64,000 bases of DNA from NCBI RefSeq assembly GCF_018228765.1, contig NZ_CP073695.1, positions 1,240,001 through 1,304,000 of the forward strand, given 5' to 3'. Numbering within the stretch: position 1 is the first letter of the stretch; every line of letters starts with the position of its first letter. A program made the translations under genes and the position numbers. Under the pieces are notes generated by a model that was not told the DNA's origin, ran no database searches, and worked only from the letters and a program-made list of their open reading frames with translations. Below, piece after piece: positions 37,528 to 56,364 of the stretch. This DNA is from Halorubrum ruber (lineage in GTDB: Archaea; Halobacteriota; Halobacteria; Halobacteriales; Haloferacaceae).

Positions 37528-40427
37528 CTACCCGTCCCGGTTGAGCCGTTCCCGGTGGAGTACCTCGCCCTCGGCGAAGACGACGGCGGCCAGTCCCGGC
37601 TCCGAGTCGACCGCGACGCTCGTCTCGTCGCCGGCGGTCACCTCGTCGGCGTCGGAGTCCCAGGGGCGCAATCCCTCGGTCGCGGGTTCCACGACCACGT
37701 CGAGGCGGTCGGCATCGAGCGCGTCACCGCCGACGTGAGAGAACGTCACGACGCCCCCCTCGCCGTCGTCGGCCGGTTCGTACGCGACCTCGAACGTCGC
37801 CTGCGGGGGGATAACGTGTTCCGTCACGGTTCGGGTCTCGTCGCCGGCGGTCCACTCGACGGCGACCGTCGTGCCGGCGGAGAGATCGCCGAGCGACAGC
37901 GTCTCGCCGCCGGTCAGTCGGTCCGTCTCGTCGGCGGGCTGCTCCGTCGCGGGCTCGCCGTCGATCAGCACTCGGAAGGCGTCGGCGTCGCGGCGAACCT
38001 CGCCGACGTAGCGGAGCGTGACCCCCGATCCCTCGCCGCCTCCGTCCCCGTCGTTAACGACGAATCCGCGGCGGGGCGCCGCCGAGAAGTAGCCGACGGA
38101 ACTGGTCGCCGATCCGTTCTCGAACTCGGTGTGGACGCTGACGACGACGGTGTCGTCGAGCCCGACGTCGTCGACCGTGACCGTGTCCCCCGACGTGAGC
38201 TCGTCGTGTTCGGCCGCGAACGCCGACTCCCGACCGCGCTCTCGCCCGCCCAGTTCGCCAGCGCCGTTCACCGACACGCGCAGCCGATCGGGGTCGGCGG
38301 GCTGTTCGCCGACGTACTCGACCGTCATGGCCTCGGAGTCGGCGTCGTAGGTCGCCGCGACCGCGTCGCGTGCCGTGGTCGTGCCGCCGAGGTGGTGTTC
38401 GCGGTCGCCGCCGGTCCACACGAGTCTGACCCGCGACAGCGGCGGCACCGGAGCGGCAAAGGAGTCGTCCGGACCGAACTCGTCGAGCTCGTCCCCGGGC
38501 TGGACGTCGGCCGGGCTGCGACCGACCTGGAGCTCCAACTCCGACGCGGGAAGCGTCCGGCCGCTCCGGTGCTGGACCGTGATCTCGCCGGCGTCCGGGT
38601 CGTACTCGATCGACGCGCGCGTGTTCGGAACGACCTCGTGGTCGGCGATGACGACCGGCTCGTCCGGCTCCCGCCACTCGACGGTGAGGGTCTTCCCCAG
38701 CGGAAGCTCGCCGAGAACCAGTTCCTCGCCGCCCGAGAGGGTGTCGTGCTCGTCTGCGAACTGCGCGTCGGTCGGCTCTCCGTCGAGCAGGGTCACGAAC
38801 GCGTCAGCGGGTCGCGGCTTCTCTCCGTCGTACCCGACCGTGGTCCCGCCCTCGCCGTGCGAGTGGACCCAAACGCGCGGGGGCTGGCGCGGTAATAGAT
38901 GAGCGAGTCGCCGCCCGACGGTTGCTCGACGTCGAACTCCAGCTGTACGCTGTCGCCGATCGACACGTCGTCGACGGTGACCGCGTCGCCGGGGGTGAGC
39001 GTTCCGTCGGTGAACTCCTCCCCGGCTGTTTGGACCCCTCTCTCGCCGCGGTGGACCAGCCGAAGGTCGCTCGCGTCGGCGGAGCGTTCGGCCTCGTAGG
39101 CGAGTTCCAACGTCTCGTCGCTCATGTCGTAGTCGACGGCGAACGCCTCGCGGTCGACCTGTTCGCTGGCGTACGTGTCGTAGACGTTCGCGTCCGGGTC
39201 GAACCATCGCAGCGTGACGGTTGCGATCAGTCCGGTCTCGACGGTGATCTCGTCGCCCGCGGTGAACTCCTTCCCGTCGAGGACCGTGTCGCTCACCTCC
39301 TCGCCGTCGTGCCAGACCTCCAGCTCGTCGGCCGGCACGGCCTCGCCTTCGACGTGTTCGAACGTCACGGTTCCGGCGGCCCGGTCGAACTCCGACATGA
39401 CTCGGGCGTCCGGCGACGCCTCACGGTCGAGTTCCGGCGGGGCCTCGACGACGGCGTCGACGAGCACGACGCCGTCGGAACGCGTGATGTCCATTTCGAC
39501 GGGGTCTGCGGGGTCGACCGTACGCACGAGTCGCCTGACGGTCCCGTCGTCGAGTTCGTCGGGAGCCGCGGCCGGACGGACCACGTACGCGTTCTCCGCC
39601 GTGCCGTCGATGTCTCGGAGGTCGTTCGGGTCGGTCTCGAAGCCGGCGGCGAACGCGTCCACGTCGTCGGGGACCGACAGCGGAAACGGACCGCCGGCGG
39701 CGTCCGGAACCAAAAGCACCGTTTCGAATCCACCGAGCTTGGGGAGGGCGGCCTCGCCCAGCGGCGATTCCGCGAAACGGTCGGCCTCGTCGGCGGCGGC
39801 CTGGCCGGCAACGCGAGCCGCTTCGATCCGTCGGTCCCTCACCTCGTCTTCCGACGGCGCAGAACCACTGCGAGGGCTCGGCGAGTACCCACCGCCGGTC
39901 GCGGCGGCCGCCACGCCGTCGCCGGTGACGAGCGCGGTCTCATTGTCGTCGGCGAGCCGCCAGCCCGCGGGGAGTTCGTCCGTCGTCTCGGCCTCCGCCG
40001 GGATGTCGTCGTCCGACTCTCCGTCTCCCTCGCCGACAGCGATCGTCTCGCCGCGGTCGGAGCGGTCGAAACCGCCGGCCGCCGTCTCTAACCGGACCCC
40101 GCGTTCGGAGGGAGTGACCGCGACGGTCGCAGCCAACTCCTCGGCGTCGACGTCGAGCCGCTCGGCCGTGGAACGGGCGCGGTAGCTCAGATCCGCTTCC
40201 GCGTCGGCGTCGACGCGGTCCGCAATCAGCATCGTATACGTCGCTGACAGCGCGTCCCCCGTCGGCAGCGGGAGGAACGCGTCGGCGAACGGGGCCGAAA
40301 TATCGACGTCGAGGTCTCTCGGACGGCCTGCGGCAGTCGCGTCGGTTTCGGGGGCGAGAACACCTGTCAGCGCTGCGAGCGTCAGGGCGCTTCCCCCGAG
40401 GAAGCGCCGACGGGAGGGTCGTACCAT
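37528..40427 (-). pseudogene. Large Tat-exported beta-repeat protein, split by a frameshift
   Basis: Two abutting frames form one protein of about 966 aa. The N-terminal part (ATG 40427) has a twin-arginine signal (R-R-R-F-L-G-G-S-A-L-T-L-A-A-L) and no lipobox. Several units of about 90-100 residues follow, each with an F-T-A-G-D-E-I-T-V-like beta motif (TLTPGDAVTVDD, TLSGGEELVLGE, ELTSGDTVTVDD, RLTGGETLSLGD). The frame breaks in the G-run at 38879-38883 (one base missing) and continues as PPRVWVHSHGEGG down to 37528. It is probably a surface protein with Ig-like or pilin-like beta domains. The promoter TTTTTATATACATC at about 40450 fits a leaderless start. Confidence 0.75.
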
Positions 40428-40444
40428 ACGCACCGATCTCGACG

Positions 40445-40645
40445 ATGTATATAAAAACGGTCGATAATACAAATCGTCGTTGTAGTGTCCGTGAGCGTCC
40501 CGAAACGATTGAAGCGAAAGCGCGAGAGGCGCTCAAACACGATGACCCGAGGACGGATTGTGATGTCACGGTTCGCGCTCACAACCGGGATTACGACTCG
40601 GATCGGAGCGTGAAGAATCACCTCATCAGAACTGGTGAGGGATGA
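40445..40645 (+). CDS. Short ORF, possibly a gene remnant
   Basis: A frame whose later part (RPETIEAKAREALKH, then TVRAHNRDYDSDRSVKNHL) reads like a real small protein. Its ATG lies in the TATA box of the divergent Tat-protein gene, and no better start is visible; that box could also drive this strand with a start near 40478. It could be a degraded C-terminus of a transferred gene. Weak call. Confidence 0.3.
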   Translation: MYIKTVDNTNRRCSVRERPETIEAKAREALKHDDPRTDCDVTVRAHNRDYDSDRSVKNHLIRTGEG

Positions 40646-40658
40646 CGTTATGAAATCA

Positions 40659-40688
40659 CAATTTCTGAAATTGCGATTTCCAAAATCG
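40659..40688 (+). promoter_or_regulatory. Two abutting 15-bp dyads upstream of the ATPase gene
   Basis: CAATTTCTGAAATTG (40659-40673) and CGATTTCCAAAATCG (40674-40688) are adjacent, similar inverted repeats 34 bp from the ATG at 40723. They look like a paired operator overlapping the core promoter. Confidence 0.5.
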
Positions 40689-40722
40689 GGAGTTCTATCT
40701 GCGTGGAGCGAGGAGTAACAGT

Positions 40723-42105
40723 ATGGAACGATTCGTTGATCGGGACGCCGAACTCGATCAACTCACGGCCTGTTACGACTCCGAGACGGCGGACCTCGTC
40801 GTGATCTACGGGCGTCGTCGTCTCGGGAAAAGCGAGCTCGTCCGCCAGTCGATCGCCGATCGGGACGACGCGGTGTACTACCAGGCGGTCGAGTCCACGG
40901 CGCAGAACCAGTGTGAGCAGTTCGTCGAGACCGTCACTGCGCAGTTCCCGTCGCTACGAAACGTTCGCCGTGACTGGGAGGTGCTTCTCGAAGCACTGGG
41001 GACAGAAGACGCCGTCGTCGTAATCGACGAGTTCCCGTTCCTCATCGACGAGGACGAATCACTCCCGTCGCGGATCCAACGCGTCTGGGACACGGAGCTA
41101 CAGGACACCGGAATGACGCTCGTGCTCGTCGGGTCGTCGATCAGCGTCATGGAAGACAAGGTGCTCTCCGGAAGCGCACCGTTGTACGGGCGGCGAACGG
41201 CGACGATCGACCTCGAACCGCTCTCGGTCGGGGACGCCCGCGAGTTCTTCCCGGCGTATGACCCGGAGACTGCGATCGCCGTGTGGTCGATTTACGGGGG
41301 TACGCCGTACTACCTCCAGACGATCGACCCCGACCAACCGTTAGGAACGAATGTCCAGCAGGCGATCCTGTCGGAGCGCGGGCTCCTGTACTCCGAGCCC
41401 GAGTTCCTGCTCCGGACCGAGCTCCGGCAACCGAACACGTACTTCAGCATCCTCCGAGCGCTCGCACACGGCCGTCGAACGCCGAACGAAATCGCGGGCA
41501 TGGCCGGCGTCGAGTCGGGGTCGCTCAGCACGTACCTCCAGAAGCTCCGTCGCCTCCGCCTCGTCGAACGCCACATCCCCGTGACGGCGTCGCCGACGTC
41601 GTCGAACCGCGGGCGGTATCGCATCGGTGCGCCGCTGTTCCGGTTCTGGTTCCGGTTCGTGTACGGGAACCAAGACCAGCTCCGCTTGCTCGGCGACGAC
41701 GCGTACGACGAACTCGTGGCACCGGAGCTCGCGGATTACGTGAGTCCGTTGTTCGAACGCCTCTGTCAGCGGTCGCTCCCCGCTCTCGTCGATCGACAGT
41801 TCACGGACCTCGGGCAGTGGTGGTTCAAGGAACACGAGTTAGACGTGCTCGGGCTCACTGGCGAGGGACTCGTCGCGGGCGAGTGTAAGTTCACCTCGCG
41901 CCCCGTGAGCGAAGGCGTCCTCGCGGACCTCGAACGGACGGCATCGGAAGTACGGTGGGCGGCGGAACCGGCAGACGGGACGTCGCTGTACGTCTTGTTC
42001 AGCCGCTCCGGATTCACCGACGACCTCGAACGCGCCGCCGACGCCCGCGACGACGTCCGCCTCTTCGACGTGCCGGACGTGATCGCTACTGAAGGGAACC
42101 CGTGA
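40723..42105 (+). CDS. Archaeal ATPase with DUF234 (PD-(D/E)XK-like) C-terminus
   Basis: A 460-aa STAND/MNS-type archaeal ATPase. The P-loop is GRRRLGKS (30-37) and the Walker B-like VVVIDEFPF is at about 98-106. A winged helix (PNEIAGMAGVESGSLSTYLQKLRRLRLVERH) is central. The C-terminal DUF234 domain has D374 (ELDVL) and E387-x-K389 (GECKF), a PD-(D/E)XK nuclease signature. Such proteins are common in archaeal mobile and defence regions, but their activity is poorly characterised. It stands first in a group with a Mrr-like nuclease. Confidence 0.88.
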   Translation: MERFVDRDAELDQLTACYDSETADLVVIYGRRRLGKSELVRQSIADRDDAVYYQAVESTAQNQCEQFVETVTAQFPSLRNVRRDWEVLLEALGTEDAVVVIDEFPFLIDEDESLPSRIQRVWDTELQDTGMTLVLVGSSISVMEDKVLSGSAPLYGRRTATIDLEPLSVGDAREFFPAYDPETAIAVWSIYGGTPYYLQTIDPDQPLGTNVQQAILSERGLLYSEPEFLLRTELRQPNTYFSILRALAHGRRTPNEIAGMAGVESGSLSTYLQKLRRLRLVERHIPVTASPTSSNRGRYRIGAPLFRFWFRFVYGNQDQLRLLGDDAYDELVAPELADYVSPLFERLCQRSLPALVDRQFTDLGQWWFKEHELDVLGLTGEGLVAGECKFTSRPVSEGVLADLERTASEVRWAAEPADGTSLYVLFSRSGFTDDLERAADARDDVRLFDVPDVIATEGNP

Positions 42106-42302
42106 ACGCTCGTCTCTGCCCGTTCACAATTTTAGCACACTCAGACGGCCGATCGATGAGGCGATTGTAGCGCTTTCGGACCTACGTCGAGTGCGGCCAC
42201 AAGGCGCGAGTCCTGGTGAGGAATCTCGTGAACCGTCGCCGCTTAGTTTGAGAGTTTCAATAGAGCCTTTAGCGAGCGGCTGACATGTGATGAGTACGCG
42301 CA

Positions 42303-43667
42303 ATGCCTGTCCTCGATGACCTCTCCGGATTCGAGTTCGAGGACGTGATGGAGGACGTGTTCCGGAATCTCGGGTACGAAAACGTGCGGCAGGCTGAGCG
42401 GACGGCTGACGAAGGACGCGACATCCTGATGGAAGAGGTAGTTGATGGGACGCGGCGCGGCGTCGTCGTCGAGTGTAAGCACACGGATACCGTCGGGCGG
42501 CCGGTCGTCCAGAAGCTCCACTCGGCGATTGCGACGTTCGAGTTCGACGGGCCGAAACGGGGAATGGTGGCGACAACCGGTCGGTTCACCGGCCCGGCCG
42601 TTGAGTACGCCGACCGGTTGCGGCGGAACGACGACCCGTATCCGATCGAACTGATCGATGGCGAGGACCTGCGTGAGATCGCCGACGAGATCGGGCTTGA
42701 CCTCTACAACGGTCGAATCGAAATCCTGTGCGACGAAACCCTTCGACCGTACGACCCGGCGACGTCGGTGGCGGCACCCGTCGAGGAAGCGTTCCAAGAC
42801 ATCGACAACATCGAATCGGCGGACCTCCCCGAACCGCATACCACCGTCACGTTCCGACCGGTCGTCACTGTGACCGCGGACACGAACGCGGTGTTCGAGA
42901 CCTCTGTCGGCGTGATTCACCGAGTCAACGACCGGTCTCGGTTCGTTGTCCACGCCGAACGCGGCCGCCCGGAGACCGCGACTCGTGACGTCTCGAACCT
43001 CGTGATAGAGAACCTCGACGCGACCGTCGAGCTCGACGCGGACCGGTTCGACGATCCGTTCGACGCGGTCGAGGAGCGACGGTTCGGGCAAACGCAGACC
43101 GAGTACAAAGACTGGGCTGTCGACCGGCTCCGGGACCACCACACGACCACCGTCTCCTACACCGGAGACAACAACGTCACGTACACGAAAACGTGCGAGC
43201 CGAAGCGGTCCGACATCTCGGTCCAATCGATTGAGCCGGTGTACCTCCCACAGGTCCGGCACACGACCGACCTGGGAGAATACGCGTATCCGTACGAGTA
43301 CTTCGCGGCGGGACCGTCGCGCGTGACGAGCGAGGACGGGGTTCACCGGTGTGTCCACTGCGACACGGCAGGGACCGACGCGGCCTACACGTACTGTGCG
43401 AACTGCGGGAGCATTAACTGCGACTCGCACATCAAAACAGAGCGTCTAGAGGATACTCCCGTCTGTACCGGGTGCGCGGTGACCGAGCGCTTCGCGTTCA
43501 AAACGAAGTACTTCTACGACGCGGAGAATCGGGACGCGTTCCGCGAGGAGTACGAATCGATGGCGTTCTACGAGAAGGCGATGGAGAACACGCCGCTCGC
43601 CGCGGGTGCGGTCTGCGTCGTCGTCCTCGTCTTGCTCGGAGTGCTTCTCAGTATCGGCGGTCTCTGA
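42303..43667 (+). CDS. Membrane-anchored Mrr-like restriction endonuclease with zinc fingers
   Basis: A 454-aa protein. Residues 1 to about 120 form a Mrr-type endonuclease domain with G-R-D (D40) and E57-C-K59 in VVVECKH, preceded by the helix FEDVMEDVFRNLGYENV. A long beta-rich middle (about 150-340) is of unknown type. Then come zinc-ribbon pairs (CVHC, CANC, CTGC, about 349-400) and a final hydrophobic segment (about 433-452) that would anchor it in the membrane. Mrr nucleases cut modified foreign DNA. A nuclease tethered to the membrane next to an ATPase-nuclease suggests defence at DNA entry; this is inference. A CCTTTAGCG box lies about 30 bp upstream. Confidence 0.82.
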   Translation: MPVLDDLSGFEFEDVMEDVFRNLGYENVRQAERTADEGRDILMEEVVDGTRRGVVVECKHTDTVGRPVVQKLHSAIATFEFDGPKRGMVATTGRFTGPAVEYADRLRRNDDPYPIELIDGEDLREIADEIGLDLYNGRIEILCDETLRPYDPATSVAAPVEEAFQDIDNIESADLPEPHTTVTFRPVVTVTADTNAVFETSVGVIHRVNDRSRFVVHAERGRPETATRDVSNLVIENLDATVELDADRFDDPFDAVEERRFGQTQTEYKDWAVDRLRDHHTTTVSYTGDNNVTYTKTCEPKRSDISVQSIEPVYLPQVRHTTDLGEYAYPYEYFAAGPSRVTSEDGVHRCVHCDTAGTDAAYTYCANCGSINCDSHIKTERLEDTPVCTGCAVTERFAFKTKYFYDAENRDAFREEYESMAFYEKAMENTPLAAGAVCVVVLVLLGVLLSIGGL

Positions 43668-44311
43668 CGGATTCTCCTGCCGCGTTCGCCTTCGCGGAAA
43701 CCAGTGCCGGACGGTGGGATCCCTTCCGGGTGAACGTTCTGACCGGCGCGCGTGGAGGTCCGCGACCCTTCCAGACACCTGTCCGTTGATCCGAGTCATA
43801 TCGTCGGATTCCCGGACGGAGGCGACCAGCATACGGCGACCGGTTGAGTTAGGAAGTTCCCGGCCTAAAAACAGGATCTAAAAACTGCGATTCGGGCGCC
43901 AGAAAGTCTGATGAAAGTGAAATCGCACGGTTACAGCTCGTGCGTACTACGTAGGGGGTGGGGGCGGATTCGAACCACTGTCCTGATCGGCTTCGTGCGG
44001 TTTTATTCCCTCTGGGGCGCACCGCAACGCACAATGCTTCACGCTAGAGCGTCGTCAGCGAGGGTAGACCGCTGACCCGCGCAACTGCCGGGGATCCAAC
44101 AATCGCACGGAGGTTACCCCCGGAAGAAGCGGTCGACCGGTACGACGCAAGTCAGTGAGAACCGGTAATCGGCTGTTTGGGATTATGGTATGACTGTCGG
44201 GCGTATCGAGTCAAACTGTGCTGATAGAATTTGTATAGAGAACTTGCTGTGAGCTAATGCGGTTCAATAAACTGATTAGATTCAATACGTGTCGTCACAC
44301 AAAGATATCTC
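43668..44311. other. Gene-free interval with a tRNA 3'-end fragment
   Basis: About 640 bp. The only recognisable content is a tRNA-like 3' end at 43957-43985 (see separate entry) and AT-rich sequence from about 44160 leading into the pentapeptide-channel gene. No coding frame is convincing. Confidence 0.55.
43957..43985 (-). other. tRNA 3'-half fragment, possible attachment-site remnant
   Basis: On the minus strand it reads a T-arm (GTGGTTCGAATCCGCC) followed by an acceptor-like CCCACCC. It has no D-arm or anticodon arm. It shares GGGCGGATTCGAACC and 23 of 28 flanking positions with the tRNA-Val gene at 46319-46393, in the same orientation. Confidence 0.45.
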
Positions 44312-46105
44312 ATGGGAATCTGCGAAGACGCGCCCGAGGAGTACTGCGGGCATGTTCTGAAACCGGAGGATGTTGGACTTGATGAGAAAGCAAGTGACAA
44401 GTGGCAAAAAGACGCGCATAACGCTGTTTGTCTCCGTGAACCGAAGTACAACGGACTATGCGTTTGGCACGCCGATAAAAAACAAAAGAGTATACAGGAA
44501 CTGATTGAGGCAAAACAAACATCTGAAGATGTATGCTGGGACGCGGAGTGCGTGAAAGAACACCTTGGTGGGGCTATCTTACGCGGGATTAGGTTCCCTG
44601 ATGGGTTCTCATTCCGTGACTGTATTCTCTCGTTTGCTGACTTTTCTCGTACTACTCTAAGGCAAGCAAAATTTGGTAGTAGCTATCTGTATAAAGCTGA
44701 TTTTCGCAATGCTGACCTCCGGGGTGTCGATTTTTTTAATGCCTCCCTCATAAGTGCTGAATTCCCGAAGGTCTACTTGCATGAAGCCAAGTTTATCGAT
44801 GCTGACCTCTCCAGGGCCACGTTTTCAGACAGTTACCTCACCAAAGCCGACTTTTGTATGGCCGACCTCCCCCAAGCTAAGTTTCAGAATGTTCATCTCC
44901 GCAAAGCCTTTTTCCGCAAGGCTAACCTCCCCCAAGCCGAGTTTCATAATTCGTATCTCCGCAAATCCGACTTCTCTGACGCTGATCTATCTAAAACTGT
45001 ATTTTGCGATGGATACTGTTGCTCTGCTGACTTCTCCAATGCTATCATCCGAAAAGCTGAATTTTCTTCGAGCAATCTCAAAGAAACAAACTTTTCTCGA
45101 TCTGAAATATCCGGCACACAGTTTGTTAACGTCAACCTCAAACAGGCTGAATTTCCTCGTGCCAACCTCGAAGAATCTGCGTTTGTAGAAACAAATCTTC
45201 GCGAAATTAATCTCACGGAAGCGAACTTACGGGAAGCAGAGTTCTCGGATGCGGATCTACGAAATGCCACATTTAGACCTGCGTTCGCAAGGACGCTCAC
45301 ATCGGAAGATGACATTCCAACCGACCCACTTGGTGCCTCACTTGAAGCCGCAGATCTCACCGGTGGGACAGACCTACGTGGCGCGAATCTCTCCGGAGCG
45401 CGGCTCTACCAAGTAAATCTCAGTGATGTTCGTATTAACAATAGAACTCAGTTCGGGATTGACGAGGAAGCCGGTGGCATGCGTGAGATATGTCGGTATG
45501 AGTACGACCCAAATACAGGAGTATATATAAACGAAGATATGCCTCATCTTCGGGCCGCTGCGTGGACGTATCGTCGTCTGGAGTCGCTATTTGAAGAGTA
45601 CGCGATGAACGAACGTGCTCGGAACGCACACATCCGAAGGCAGGAGGCACAGAGAGCGTATCAAAAAGAACGATTAAAAAATAGTGATCGGATTGAAGGA
45701 AGCAACTTCCTCTCTAGTTTGTGGCTCAAATCGTTCGGACAGTACACTGTCGGAACGCTAAACTGGAACCTCCACCGTCATGGTGAAAGTTTGCGAAGAC
45801 TGCTCGGCATGTCGGGGTTGCTGATTTTCTTATGTGGAATTGTCTACTCTAGTGCCGGTATCGCACGGAGTAATCCCGAGACGACGTACCGTGTTACCCT
45901 GACCGACCTCACAAATCCAGGCGCGATGTTAGTCGACCTACTCAACGGCTGGTACTTCAGCGTTATCACATTCTCAACGATAGGATATGGAGATTTCTAC
46001 CCGATGAGTCCATTGTCACGCCTACTAGTTGGCGTTGAATCGCTTACTGGAGCGTTATTTATCGCTTTGTTCGTGTTCGTTCTCGGACGTCGTGTGGCGA
46101 GGTGA
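44312..46105 (+). CDS. Pentapeptide-repeat protein fused to a K+-channel-like domain
   Basis: A 597-aa protein. The N-terminus has possible zinc ligands (C4, C12, H14 and a C-x-x-H near residue 53). Residues from about 85 to 375 are A(D/N)Lxx pentapeptide repeats forming a right-handed beta-helix. A charged coiled linker (about 405-480) leads to two TM helices (about 505-525 and 570-592) flanking a pore loop TFSTIGYGD, the K+-selectivity filter (T556-D561). Codon use is AT-rich (AAA, TTT, GAT, TAT), unlike the neighbours, indicating transfer. It may act as a gated channel sensing an internal signal; no partner is known. Confidence 0.88.
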   Translation: MGICEDAPEEYCGHVLKPEDVGLDEKASDKWQKDAHNAVCLREPKYNGLCVWHADKKQKSIQELIEAKQTSEDVCWDAECVKEHLGGAILRGIRFPDGFSFRDCILSFADFSRTTLRQAKFGSSYLYKADFRNADLRGVDFFNASLISAEFPKVYLHEAKFIDADLSRATFSDSYLTKADFCMADLPQAKFQNVHLRKAFFRKANLPQAEFHNSYLRKSDFSDADLSKTVFCDGYCCSADFSNAIIRKAEFSSSNLKETNFSRSEISGTQFVNVNLKQAEFPRANLEESAFVETNLREINLTEANLREAEFSDADLRNATFRPAFARTLTSEDDIPTDPLGASLEAADLTGGTDLRGANLSGARLYQVNLSDVRINNRTQFGIDEEAGGMREICRYEYDPNTGVYINEDMPHLRAAAWTYRRLESLFEEYAMNERARNAHIRRQEAQRAYQKERLKNSDRIEGSNFLSSLWLKSFGQYTVGTLNWNLHRHGESLRRLLGMSGLLIFLCGIVYSSAGIARSNPETTYRVTLTDLTNPGAMLVDLLNGWYFSVITFSTIGYGDFYPMSPLSRLLVGVESLTGALFIALFVFVLGRRVAR

Positions 46106-46318
46106 AACTTCTTTTATATCTGGTTGGATTAATAATGGTATCGCGCGTATTGATTAGAAACACCGCTCGGTACTTCTACAATCGCGGCGAATCCCCCATG
46201 TTAACCGGTAGATGACGGCGCTACGAATGCGCCGAGGGCAGACAACTCGAAGAAAATTGTCCTCGAAATCGCAGTACGTGGCGGAGGGTGTTTCCTTCAC
46301 AAAACCACGCAGCGCGTA

Positions 46319-46393
46319 TGGGTTGGGGCGGATTCGAACCGCCGACCTGCTCCGTGTGAAGGAGCCGTCATAACCTGGCTAGACCACCAACCC
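46319..46393 (-). tRNA. tRNA-Val (anticodon CAC)
   Basis: A 75-nt cloverleaf: acceptor GGGTTGG/CCAACCC, anticodon stem GCTCC/GGAGC with loop TTCACAC (anticodon CAC), T-arm GGCGG-TTCGAAT-CCGCC, and discriminator A; CCA is not encoded. An AT-rich segment adjoins its 3' end. Confidence 0.93.
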
Positions 46394-46450: not shown

Positions 46451-47005
46451 ATGCCGCACCCGCCCGATTCACCCCCCGTGACCCACGAACTCCGCTTCCT
46501 CGAACGCCTCCGGCAGGGCGTCGCGAGCCTCCTCCACGCGCCGCTGTCGCTCGTCGGCCTCTACGCCGAGCGCGAGACACCTCGCGAGCAGTACGCGTTC
46601 ACGCTTCATGAACCGTATCCGATCGTCGAGGCGCAGCTCCACCGGCTCGGGTTCGTTCGCAACCTCGTCTCCTCACTCAAGTACCGCGACTACGAGACGC
46701 CCCCGGAGACGACCGTCGCGAGCTGGGTCCGGTACCCCGAGGGCGCGCTCGCGAGCGACCACCAGCTCCACCTCGCGCTGTACGCCGGCGCCGACCGCTC
46801 GACGACCGACGTGTACGCCCACTGGGAGCCGTCGTGGATCCGCCACCCGATCCGGCACTACCGCGCGACCGACGTCGACGCGCAGGAGGGTATCGAGCGG
46901 ACGCGGTCCCTGTTCGAGGAAGCGGGCATCGAGTACGCGGTGCTGCCGGCCGAAGAGCGGATCGGCGGCGACGCGGCCGCGACGACCGGACCGCCGCTCC
47001 AATAA
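46451..47005 (+). CDS. Haloarchaeal conserved hypothetical protein
   Basis: A 184-aa soluble protein with LLHAPLSLVGLYAERETPREQYAFTLHEP, SLKYRDYETPPETTVASWVRYP and DVYAHWEPSWIRHPIRHYRATD. The conserved Trp/His/Tyr pattern looks like a globular haloarchaea-specific family, with no function I can assign. It begins about 58 bp beyond the tRNA-Val gene and is convergent with the DUF7553-like gene. Confidence 0.7.
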   Translation: MPHPPDSPPVTHELRFLERLRQGVASLLHAPLSLVGLYAERETPREQYAFTLHEPYPIVEAQLHRLGFVRNLVSSLKYRDYETPPETTVASWVRYPEGALASDHQLHLALYAGADRSTTDVYAHWEPSWIRHPIRHYRATDVDAQEGIERTRSLFEEAGIEYAVLPAEERIGGDAAATTGPPLQ

Positions 47006-55101: not shown

Positions 55102-56364
55102 ATGGCAGCCAGCACCGGCGACGGTCTCGGAGCGGGTCTCTCCGGGAACATCCTGAAATACTACGTCTACAAGGCGACGAAATCGGTCGAGTTCTATCGG
55201 CCGATCATGTACCTCTTCTTTCTGGCGCAGGGGCTCTCGTTCACGCAGATCGCCGTTCTGGAGGCAGTGTATAACCTGACCACGGTGTTTGGTGAGATCC
55301 CGACCGGCTACGTCGGCGACCGCGTCGGGCGGCGCAACAGCCTCCTCATCGGGACCGCGCTCATCTCCGTGACGCTCCTCGGTATCGGGCTGTCGGGCTC
55401 GTTCCTCCCGCTGGCCGGCCTCTACGTCTGCTGGTCGCTGGGGTACAACTTCCGCTCCGGAAGCGAGGACGCGTGGCTCTACGACACGCTCACCGACGAC
55501 CTCTCCGAGGACGAGTTCGCCCGCGTTCGGGGGCGCGGGGAGTCAGCGGCGCTGGCCGTCGGCGCCGTCGCGGCGGTCCTCGGCGGGTACCTCGGCAGCG
55601 TCGACCTCTCGTATCCGTGGTTCGTCGCGGCGGGCGTGACGAGTCTCGGGGTCCCGGTGCTGCTCACGCTCGACGAGTCCGAGACGTACAAGGAGACCGA
55701 CACGGAGGACCTGACCCTCCGCCGAACCGCCGGTATCGTGAAAGCGGTCATCTCGCGCCGTCGGATGCGCTCGTTCCTGTTGTACTACTACGTCCTCTAC
55801 GCCGCCGTCACCTACCTCGTGTTCGTCTTCCTCCAGCCGATATTCGAGACCGTCGTTCTCGACCTCGGGATCTCGCAATCGCAGGTCGAACCCCTCCTCG
55901 GGTGGTTCTACGCGGCGTACAGCCTCGTCGGTGCGGTCCTCTCCTACTACACGGGAGCGATACGGGAGCGGATCGGGCTGCGGACGTGGTTCCTCGTCCT
56001 CCCGTTCGCCGTCGGCGGCGCGCTGATCGCGATGTACTTCGTCCCGGTGCTCGCGCTCCCGACGTTCCTCCTGATCCGGGGGGTGTCGGACGTCACGCGG
56101 TCGTTCGCCGGCCAGTACGTCAACGACCGCGTGGAGACGCTCGGTCGCGCCACCGTCCTGAGCGCGATGGCGATGGTGAGCGGGCTCGCCGTCGTCCCGT
56201 TCCAACTCGGGAGCGGCGTCGTGTCCGACGCCGTCTCCCCGCTGTTCGCGCTCGGCGTCGGCGGCGTCGTCCTCGTCGTCGGGGCGACGGTCATCCTCCT
56301 CTGGCGGGTTCCGATCGGCGACGAAGCGACCGAAGACTCCCGTGACGAACGGCCGGATGGCTGA
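55102..56364 (+). CDS. MFS transporter
   Basis: A 420-aa, 12-TM MFS protein. The conserved loop 2-3 motif appears as GYVGDRVGRRNSLLIG (G-D-R-x-G-R-R). TM5 is preceded by LGYNFRSGSEDAWLYDTLTDD, characteristic of the DHA-like or tetracycline-resistance-related MFS subgroup. RVRGRGESAALAVGAVAAVLGGYLG follows. Exporter of unknown substrate. It is convergent with the ATP-grasp gene. Confidence 0.85.
   Translation: MAASTGDGLGAGLSGNILKYYVYKATKSVEFYRPIMYLFFLAQGLSFTQIAVLEAVYNLTTVFGEIPTGYVGDRVGRRNSLLIGTALISVTLLGIGLSGSFLPLAGLYVCWSLGYNFRSGSEDAWLYDTLTDDLSEDEFARVRGRGESAALAVGAVAAVLGGYLGSVDLSYPWFVAAGVTSLGVPVLLTLDESETYKETDTEDLTLRRTAGIVKAVISRRRMRSFLLYYYVLYAAVTYLVFVFLQPIFETVVLDLGISQSQVEPLLGWFYAAYSLVGAVLSYYTGAIRERIGLRTWFLVLPFAVGGALIAMYFVPVLALPTFLLIRGVSDVTRSFAGQYVNDRVETLGRATVLSAMAMVSGLAVVPFQLGSGVVSDAVSPLFALGVGGVVLVVGATVILLWRVPIGDEATEDSRDERPDG

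What the first reader, a model, noticed from the sequence alone, without database searches (positions are those of the whole stretch)
40659..46105. Accessory cluster: DUF234 ATPase-nuclease, membrane-tethered Mrr nuclease, pentapeptide-K+ channel
Three plus-strand genes with defence-like architectures sit together between ordinary genes. The ATPase has an intact P-loop and a D/E-x-K nuclease site. The Mrr-like protein has an intact D/E-x-K site, zinc fingers and a terminal membrane helix. The channel has a full T-I-G-Y-G-D filter and a pentapeptide sensor-like domain. Nuclease plus ATPase plus membrane effector resembles the sensor-effector layout of known anti-phage systems, but I know no described system with this set. 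The channel gene may have arrived separately (different base composition, 640-bp gap).
Basis: inference. Interest (0 to 1): 0.68.

Follow-up and report, generated by a model that had tools for sequence, protein, structure and literature searches.

The report
Shuffled nuclease cassettes beside tRNA-Val
Three neighbouring genes in a salt-loving archaeon that looked like one new antiviral system are separately mobile units: a known candidate defence ATPase-nuclease with its own conserved DNA switch, a very common membrane-anchored DNA-cutting enzyme, and an ion-channel gene that inserted later into a tRNA gene, although the same switch also stands in front of the DNA-cutting enzyme in four relatives.

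Summary
The three genes and their motifs are real, but they are not one three-gene system. (1) The channel gene is a later arrival: in four relatives the flank downstream of Mrr runs unbroken into tRNA-Val, while the window carries 2.36 kb of extra, low-GC DNA between a decayed copy of the tRNA 3' end (43952-43988) and the intact tRNA. (2) The ATPase is a PDC-S27-type single-gene candidate (ATPase + PD-(D/E)XK). Close homologues sit in unrelated contexts; only two of about 52 lie beside Mrr, in opposite gene orders. (3) Mrr is a haloarchaeal family found in 190/391 genomes and on 74 plasmid records: N-terminal nuclease, C4HC3 zinc finger, C-terminal membrane anchor. Chromosomal copies often lie near other DNA-processing or defence-like genes. 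New: an iterated palindrome (GAAATC-N2-GATTTC, 15-bp period) stands before the ATPase in 22/22 homologues and before Mrr in four relatives, and occurs almost nowhere else in 52 genomes of the genus. This suggests an autoregulated ATPase and a regulatory or historical tie to Mrr. Defence function is inferred, not tested.

The parts
40651..40700 (+). Iterated palindromic operator: GAAATC-N2-GATTTC units at a 15-bp period, followed by AGTTCTAT (likely TATA box)
   Evidence: In all 22 close ATPase homologues at -72 to -23; 5 pattern matches in the window against 0.03 expected in shuffles; genome-wide rarity
40723..42105 (+). DUF234 ATPase: P-loop ATPase_2 (4-200), winged helix (about 239-284), PD-(D/E)XK DUF234 domain (309-392); PDC-S27 type
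   Evidence: Pfam, PADLOC PDC-S27 1.8e-45, invariant motifs
42246..42302 (+). Upstream block conserved with Mrr in related tRNA-Val loci; own promoter likely
   Evidence: blastn blocks begin at 42246 in L055 and L056 although upstream genes differ; upstream sequences
42303..43667 (+). Tail-anchored Mrr nuclease: Mrr_cat 4-126, alpha/beta middle 178-324, C4HC3 zinc finger 350-391, membrane helix 430-450
   Evidence: Pfam, alignments A1 and A2, model and fold search
43952..43988 (-). Decayed copy of the tRNA-Val 3' end: att-like left boundary of the channel insertion
   Evidence: 33 nt at 85% identity to tRNA-Val; alignment with uninterrupted loci
43989..46318 (.). Inserted low-GC segment carrying only the channel gene; no integrase
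   Evidence: Absent from L054, L055, L056, L061, where the same flank runs into tRNA-Val; GC 0.48-0.49
44312..46105 (+). Pentapeptide-repeat K+ channel: Cys-rich N-terminus, solenoid about 85-380, helical linker, two-helix pore with TIGYGD filter
   Evidence: Pfam, relatives and alignment, model of the solenoid
46319..46393 (-). tRNA-Val(CAC), intact; integration site
   Evidence: ARAGORN, Rfam RF00005 62 bits
46451..47005 (+). Conserved gene marking the right edge of the variable tRNA-Val site
   Evidence: In 30 of 52 genus genomes; tRNA-Val found beside it in nearly all of them

Best explanation
The stretch is a tRNA-Val integration site stocked with three separately arriving units. Shown: (a) the channel DNA is an insertion at the tRNA 3' end, later than Mrr; (b) the conserved unit of the ATPase is its coding sequence plus one palindromic operator; (c) Mrr is a separate mobile gene whose order relative to the ATPase differs between genomes. 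Inferred: the ATPase is an autoregulated single-protein defence nuclease whose winged helix holds its own operator, and which on sensing foreign DNA or infection uses ATP to unleash its PD-(D/E)XK domain. Inferred: Mrr is a membrane-tethered nuclease that cuts non-self (perhaps modified) DNA at the membrane as it enters, serving chromosomes and plasmids alike. Inferred: the channel is an unrelated lone K+ channel gated through its pentapeptide rod. The shared operator suggests that in some relatives ATPase and Mrr are, or were, under one control. The confidence given is for the whole; the anatomy alone (three independent units, later channel insertion) I hold at about 0.88, the defence role at about 0.55.
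For: Continuous flank-to-tRNA alignment in L054, L055, L056 and L061, interrupted only in the window. Operator 22/22 before the ATPase with no conserved downstream flank. ATPase and Mrr in opposite order in G343, with homology blocks starting at the operator (40651) and at 42246. Mrr in 190/391 genomes and 74 plasmid records. PDC-S27 profile 1.8e-45; the family is listed as an unvalidated single-gene candidate (PMC12988326). MspJI/AspBHI-like fold of the Mrr domain. Channel relatives are single genes on plasmids, one with an integrase gene just upstream.
Against: No function was tested. Conserved residues of Mrr show competence, not target. The operator also stands before Mrr in G224, G357 and G354, which have no ATPase of the same subtype (their best ATPase match is weaker), so the ATPase may not be the binder, or those operators may be leftovers. 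The Mrr defence-neighbour count used families first seen beside Mrr, so it is biased. The tRNA-Val site also holds ordinary metabolic genes in other genomes, so it is not a dedicated defence island. No integrase is left in the channel insert.
Confidence: 0.62

Rival explanations
1. ATPase and Mrr form one functional pair: the DUF234 ATPase senses infection and controls or licenses the Mrr nuclease; the channel is a bystander.
For: DUF234 ATPase within the fetched stretch of 7 of 20 high-identity Mrr loci, mostly same strand and upstream; operator shared by ATPase and Mrr in the genus; short gaps (roughly 40-120 bp) between ATPase and Mrr with the other subtypes.
Against: Most Mrr copies have no ATPase nearby, and the plasmid type almost never does (1/19). 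Three ATPase subtypes are involved; subtype ATP70 is tied to another cassette (c76-c77-UvrD/PDDEXK) with Mrr only sometimes following. The window subtype is beside Mrr in 2 of about 52 places, in opposite orders.
Confidence: 0.2
2. The operator before Mrr in four relatives is a fossil: ancestral operator-ATPase-Mrr loci lost the ATPase, leaving the operator behind. Mrr and ATPase then share history, not regulation.
For: Removing 40701 to about 42245 from the window arrangement gives the arrangement seen in L056, L057, L061 and L066. G170 and G363 keep operators beside internally deleted or truncated ATPase remnants.
Against: The palindromic units before Mrr stay well formed in all four genomes while their central bases differ, which suggests upkeep; no ATPase coding remnant was seen there.
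Confidence: 0.45
3. Mrr is primarily a plasmid or mobile-element gene for excluding rival DNA (a selfish trait) that chromosomes acquired secondarily.
For: 74 PLSDB plasmid records carry it, many in a conserved megaplasmid backbone; up to four copies per genome.
Against: Several of the highest-identity relatives of the window copy lie on chromosome-sized contigs, often near other DNA-processing systems.
Confidence: 0.25
4. The channel is a Hailong-type HalA effector that completes a defence module here.
For: Similar architecture (pentapeptide-like repeats, helical linker, two-helix pore) and a HalA profile match of 8.6e-11, best stretch residues 434-597.
Against: 41.6 bits against a cut-off of 250; no HalB over cut-off anywhere in the genome (28.5 against 190); no nucleotidyltransferase annotated beside the plasmid relatives examined.
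Confidence: 0.05
5. The genes serve DNA repair or plasmid maintenance rather than antiviral defence.
For: Neighbouring systems include helicase-nuclease and SMC-NurA-HerA sets, which could act in repair; toxin-antitoxin genes lie beside plasmid Mrr.
Against: Patchy, mobile distribution and multiple copies are unusual for core repair; the ATPase family is a listed defence candidate.
Confidence: 0.15

Closest known systems
PDC-S27 (PADLOC; single-gene putative defence candidate, ATPase fused to PD-(D/E)XK; PMC12988326)
   Same: Same domain make-up and single-gene nature; profile match 1.8e-45 over residues 1-352
   Different: A conserved upstream palindromic operator is shown here; I found no published description of it, and the family itself is experimentally untested
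Type IV Mrr and MspJI/AspBHI-type modification-dependent restriction endonucleases
   Same: Mrr_cat domain with intact D...ExK; predicted fold of that domain closest to MspJI and AspBHI
   Different: Nuclease domain is N-terminal, followed by an unassigned alpha/beta domain, a C4HC3 zinc finger and a C-terminal membrane anchor; no recognised modified-base reader found
Hailong HalA ion channel (NF051894)
   Same: Pentapeptide-like repeats, helical linker and a two-helix pore
   Different: Far below the family cut-off, no HalB, stand-alone gene, Cys-rich N-terminus
HetL/Qnr-type pentapeptide proteins and KcsA-type pores
   Same: Solenoid and TIGYGD filter
   Different: Fusion of both in one polypeptide

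Membership tests
PDC-S27 | ATPase domain fused to PD-(D/E)XK domain, with intact motifs | tested here: met
PDC-S27 | Anti-viral activity | not testable with these tools
   Validation is pending for most such candidates (PMC12988326)
Type IV restriction endonuclease (Mrr) | Mrr catalytic domain with intact active site | tested here: met
Type IV restriction endonuclease (Mrr) | N-terminal winged-helix recognition domain before the catalytic domain, as in E. coli Mrr (from memory) | tested here: not met
   Catalytic domain occupies residues 4-126; nothing precedes it
Type IV restriction endonuclease (Mrr) | Cleavage of modified DNA | not testable with these tools
   Needs biochemistry
Hailong (HalA) | Score above the HalA cut-off of 250 bits | tested here: not met
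   41.6 bits
Hailong (HalA) | Partner HalB nucleotidyltransferase | tested here: not met
   Best match in the genome 28.5 bits against cut-off 190; none beside the gene
Single multi-gene defence system (ATPase + Mrr + channel) | Conserved adjacency of all three | tested here: not met
   Channel has no full-length relative at E 1e-50 in the other 390 class genomes, and its partial relatives are not beside the other genes
ATPase + Mrr gene pair | Conserved adjacency | tested here: inconclusive
   7/20 high-identity Mrr loci have a DUF234 ATPase nearby, 1/19 plasmid-type; subtype varies
tRNA-targeted integration | Direct repeat of the tRNA 3' end flanking the insert, and an uninterrupted site in relatives | tested here: met
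tRNA-targeted integration | Integrase encoded in the insert | tested here: not met
   Only the channel gene was called in 43989-46318

The most novel reading that the evidence does not exclude
A haloarchaeal immune regulon: the PDC-S27 ATPase acts as both sensor and repressor at the GAAATC palindrome array, controlling itself and, in some strains, the tail-anchored Mrr nuclease that guards the membrane against incoming DNA.
Probability: 0.22. Interest if true: 0.72.

Novelty: new variant of a known kind. Interest (0 to 1): 0.45.

Why it matters
PDC-S27 is among the commonest untested archaeal defence candidates. A strongly conserved operator gives a direct handle on how it is controlled and on its regulon, and predicts that its winged helix binds DNA. 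The Mrr family is a very widespread mobile nuclease of haloarchaea, present in about half of the genomes sampled, with a membrane anchor and a zinc finger that the curated families searched here do not describe. The tRNA insertion also shows how adjacency in such sites can mislead the search for multi-gene systems.

Tried and rejected
Searched solved structures by sequence for Mrr (none) and for c37, the 799-aa protein found before Mrr in some loci (none). Viral contigs gave no relative of Mrr or the channel in a close-relatives search and phage records hold no Mrr; the one phage record with a channel match covers only 24% of the pore region. Tested Hailong membership by profile and by HalB search: rejected. 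Tested whether an ATP-binding protein near a plasmid channel was a DUF234 ATPase: it was not. The channel pore and the Mrr zinc region came out at low confidence in the models, so no fold claim is made for those parts. The tRNA-Val site as a dedicated defence island was rejected: it also holds transporters, photolyase and chlorite dismutase genes.
Full report
Observation. All three genes are present at the stated places, on the plus strand, with intact motifs. The channel lies in DNA of GC 0.48-0.49, the other two genes in 0.62-0.65, the surroundings near 0.70.

The channel is a later insertion. In four relatives of the same genus (G103, G343, G148, G224; L054, L055, L056, L061) the DNA downstream of Mrr, or in G343 the same flank, runs without a break into tRNA-Val. 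The window aligns with them up to 43988, inside the decayed tRNA end, and resumes at about 46314, at the intact tRNA. The window therefore carries an extra 2.36 kb holding only the channel gene. This is the footprint of insertion at a tRNA 3' end; the integrase is missing. No other full-length relative appears among 391 class genomes at E 1e-50; partial relatives are in G269 and G330, and plasmid relatives in Halalkalicoccus, Halocatena, Actinarchaeum and Halorussus are annotated as single genes, one with an integrase gene just upstream. Two of the plasmid proteins (L147, L148) have lost the potassium filter (TIMDGG for TIGYGD).

The tRNA-Val site is variable but not a defence island. The flanking gene 46451-47005 was found in 30 of 52 genus genomes, beside tRNA-Val in nearly all of them; Mrr is present there in five (window, G103, G343, G148, G224). 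Among the other genomes are transporters, a photolyase, an RPE65-family (carotenoid-oxygenase-type) gene and chlorite dismutase, and two hold Eco57I-type methylases.

The ATPase. It matches PDC-S27 (1.8e-45), described as a single-gene putative candidate with ATPase and PD-(D/E)XK domains and not yet validated (PMC12988326). Its close homologues (75% or more, about 52 places) lie beside Mrr in only two, judged against the Mrr places listed: the window (ATPase then Mrr) and G343 (Mrr then ATPase). In 22 loci, the window included, nothing downstream of the stop codon is conserved; upstream, one block is, in all 22.

The operator. That block, 40651-40700 in the window, is an iterated palindrome of GAAATC-N2-GATTTC units at a 15-bp period, followed by AGTTCTAT at the place of a TATA box. 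A pattern for it matches five times here against 0.03 expected. In 52 genus genomes it is found in only 12, at 15 places: six before intact ATPases, one before a truncated ATPase, two beside ATPase remnants, four directly before Mrr (G148, G224, G357, G354, each with the c37 gene upstream) and two elsewhere. The reversed control pattern gave none. In 18 ATPase-bearing genomes outside the genus it stands at the ATPase promoter, second copies included, with few extra sites; it is absent from six of the seven compared genomes without this ATPase subtype. The pattern was designed on the window and its homologues, so its presence before the ATPase is descriptive; its rarity elsewhere and its presence before Mrr are the informative parts. 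Three of the four Mrr cases have no ATPase of this subtype in the search, so either another protein binds there, or these are leftovers of a lost ATPase; the remnants in G170 and G363 show that such losses happen.

Mrr. Outside the class only a distant relative was found in the phylum sample (32% identity over nearly the full length). Across 22 sequences the mean column identity is 83%, with catalytic and zinc-binding residues invariant. The predicted nuclease domain resembles MspJI and AspBHI; the zinc region was predicted poorly, so the zinc-finger reading rests on the cysteine pattern. One literature survey reports Mrr as absent from Natrialbaceae (PMC6471742), whereas this family occurs on Natrinema and Halopiger plasmids, so it is probably not the family surveyed there; that is inference.

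Neighbourhoods. Of 20 Mrr loci with 83% identity or more, seven have a DUF234 ATPase and ten have at least one of a helicase-nuclease set (c76-c78), an SMC-NurA-HerA set or an Eco57I-type methylase; of 19 plasmid-type loci, one and none. Those query families were first noticed beside Mrr, so the comparison is biased towards Mrr. A different ATPase subtype (ATP70, at 90% or more) is a regular member of the c76-c78 cassette, and Mrr follows it in some genomes.

Conclusion. The finding is best read as a tRNA-linked site holding three independent units, two of them plausible DNA-targeting defence genes. The strongest new result is the operator. Function, binding partner and any cooperation remain untested.

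Noticed in passing
window 37528-40472 (minus strand): Two long ORFs (37528-39207 and 38793-40472) overlap in different frames and look like one secreted-protein gene broken by a frameshift.
   Followed up: no
window 56125-56221: ARAGORN reports an unassigned tRNA with a four-base anticodon (gagc); possibly an intron-bearing or mis-called tRNA.
   Followed up: no
L071:1167-7650, also L073, L159, L160, L162, L164-L166: A recurrent cassette c76 (no Pfam match), c77 (PDDEXK_1), c78 (UvrD helicase + PDDEXK) followed by a DUF234 ATPase; the ATP70 subtype has its own conserved upstream element (TTAAGTCATTATCGCAGTAATCATTAT).
   Followed up: partly
L056, L057, L061, L066: c37, a protein of 760-799 aa with no match in Pfam, PADLOC, NCBIfam or the PDB (tested on the L061 copy), lies directly upstream of the operator and Mrr.
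   Followed up: partly
L147:3849-5483, L148:4074-5483: Pentapeptide channel relatives whose potassium filter is replaced by TIMDGG.
   Followed up: no
L074-L092, L144, L145: Plasmid-type Mrr sits in a conserved megaplasmid backbone across several haloarchaeal families, next to toxin-antitoxin genes in pHS3.
   Followed up: partly
L197:3038-3081, L198:3084-3112, L199:3076-3104, L200:3443-3471: Operator-like palindromes without a nearby ATPase of this subtype; L199 also holds Mrr and a gene resembling a nucleotidyltransferase, L200 a 737-aa protein that may be a nuclease.
   Followed up: partly
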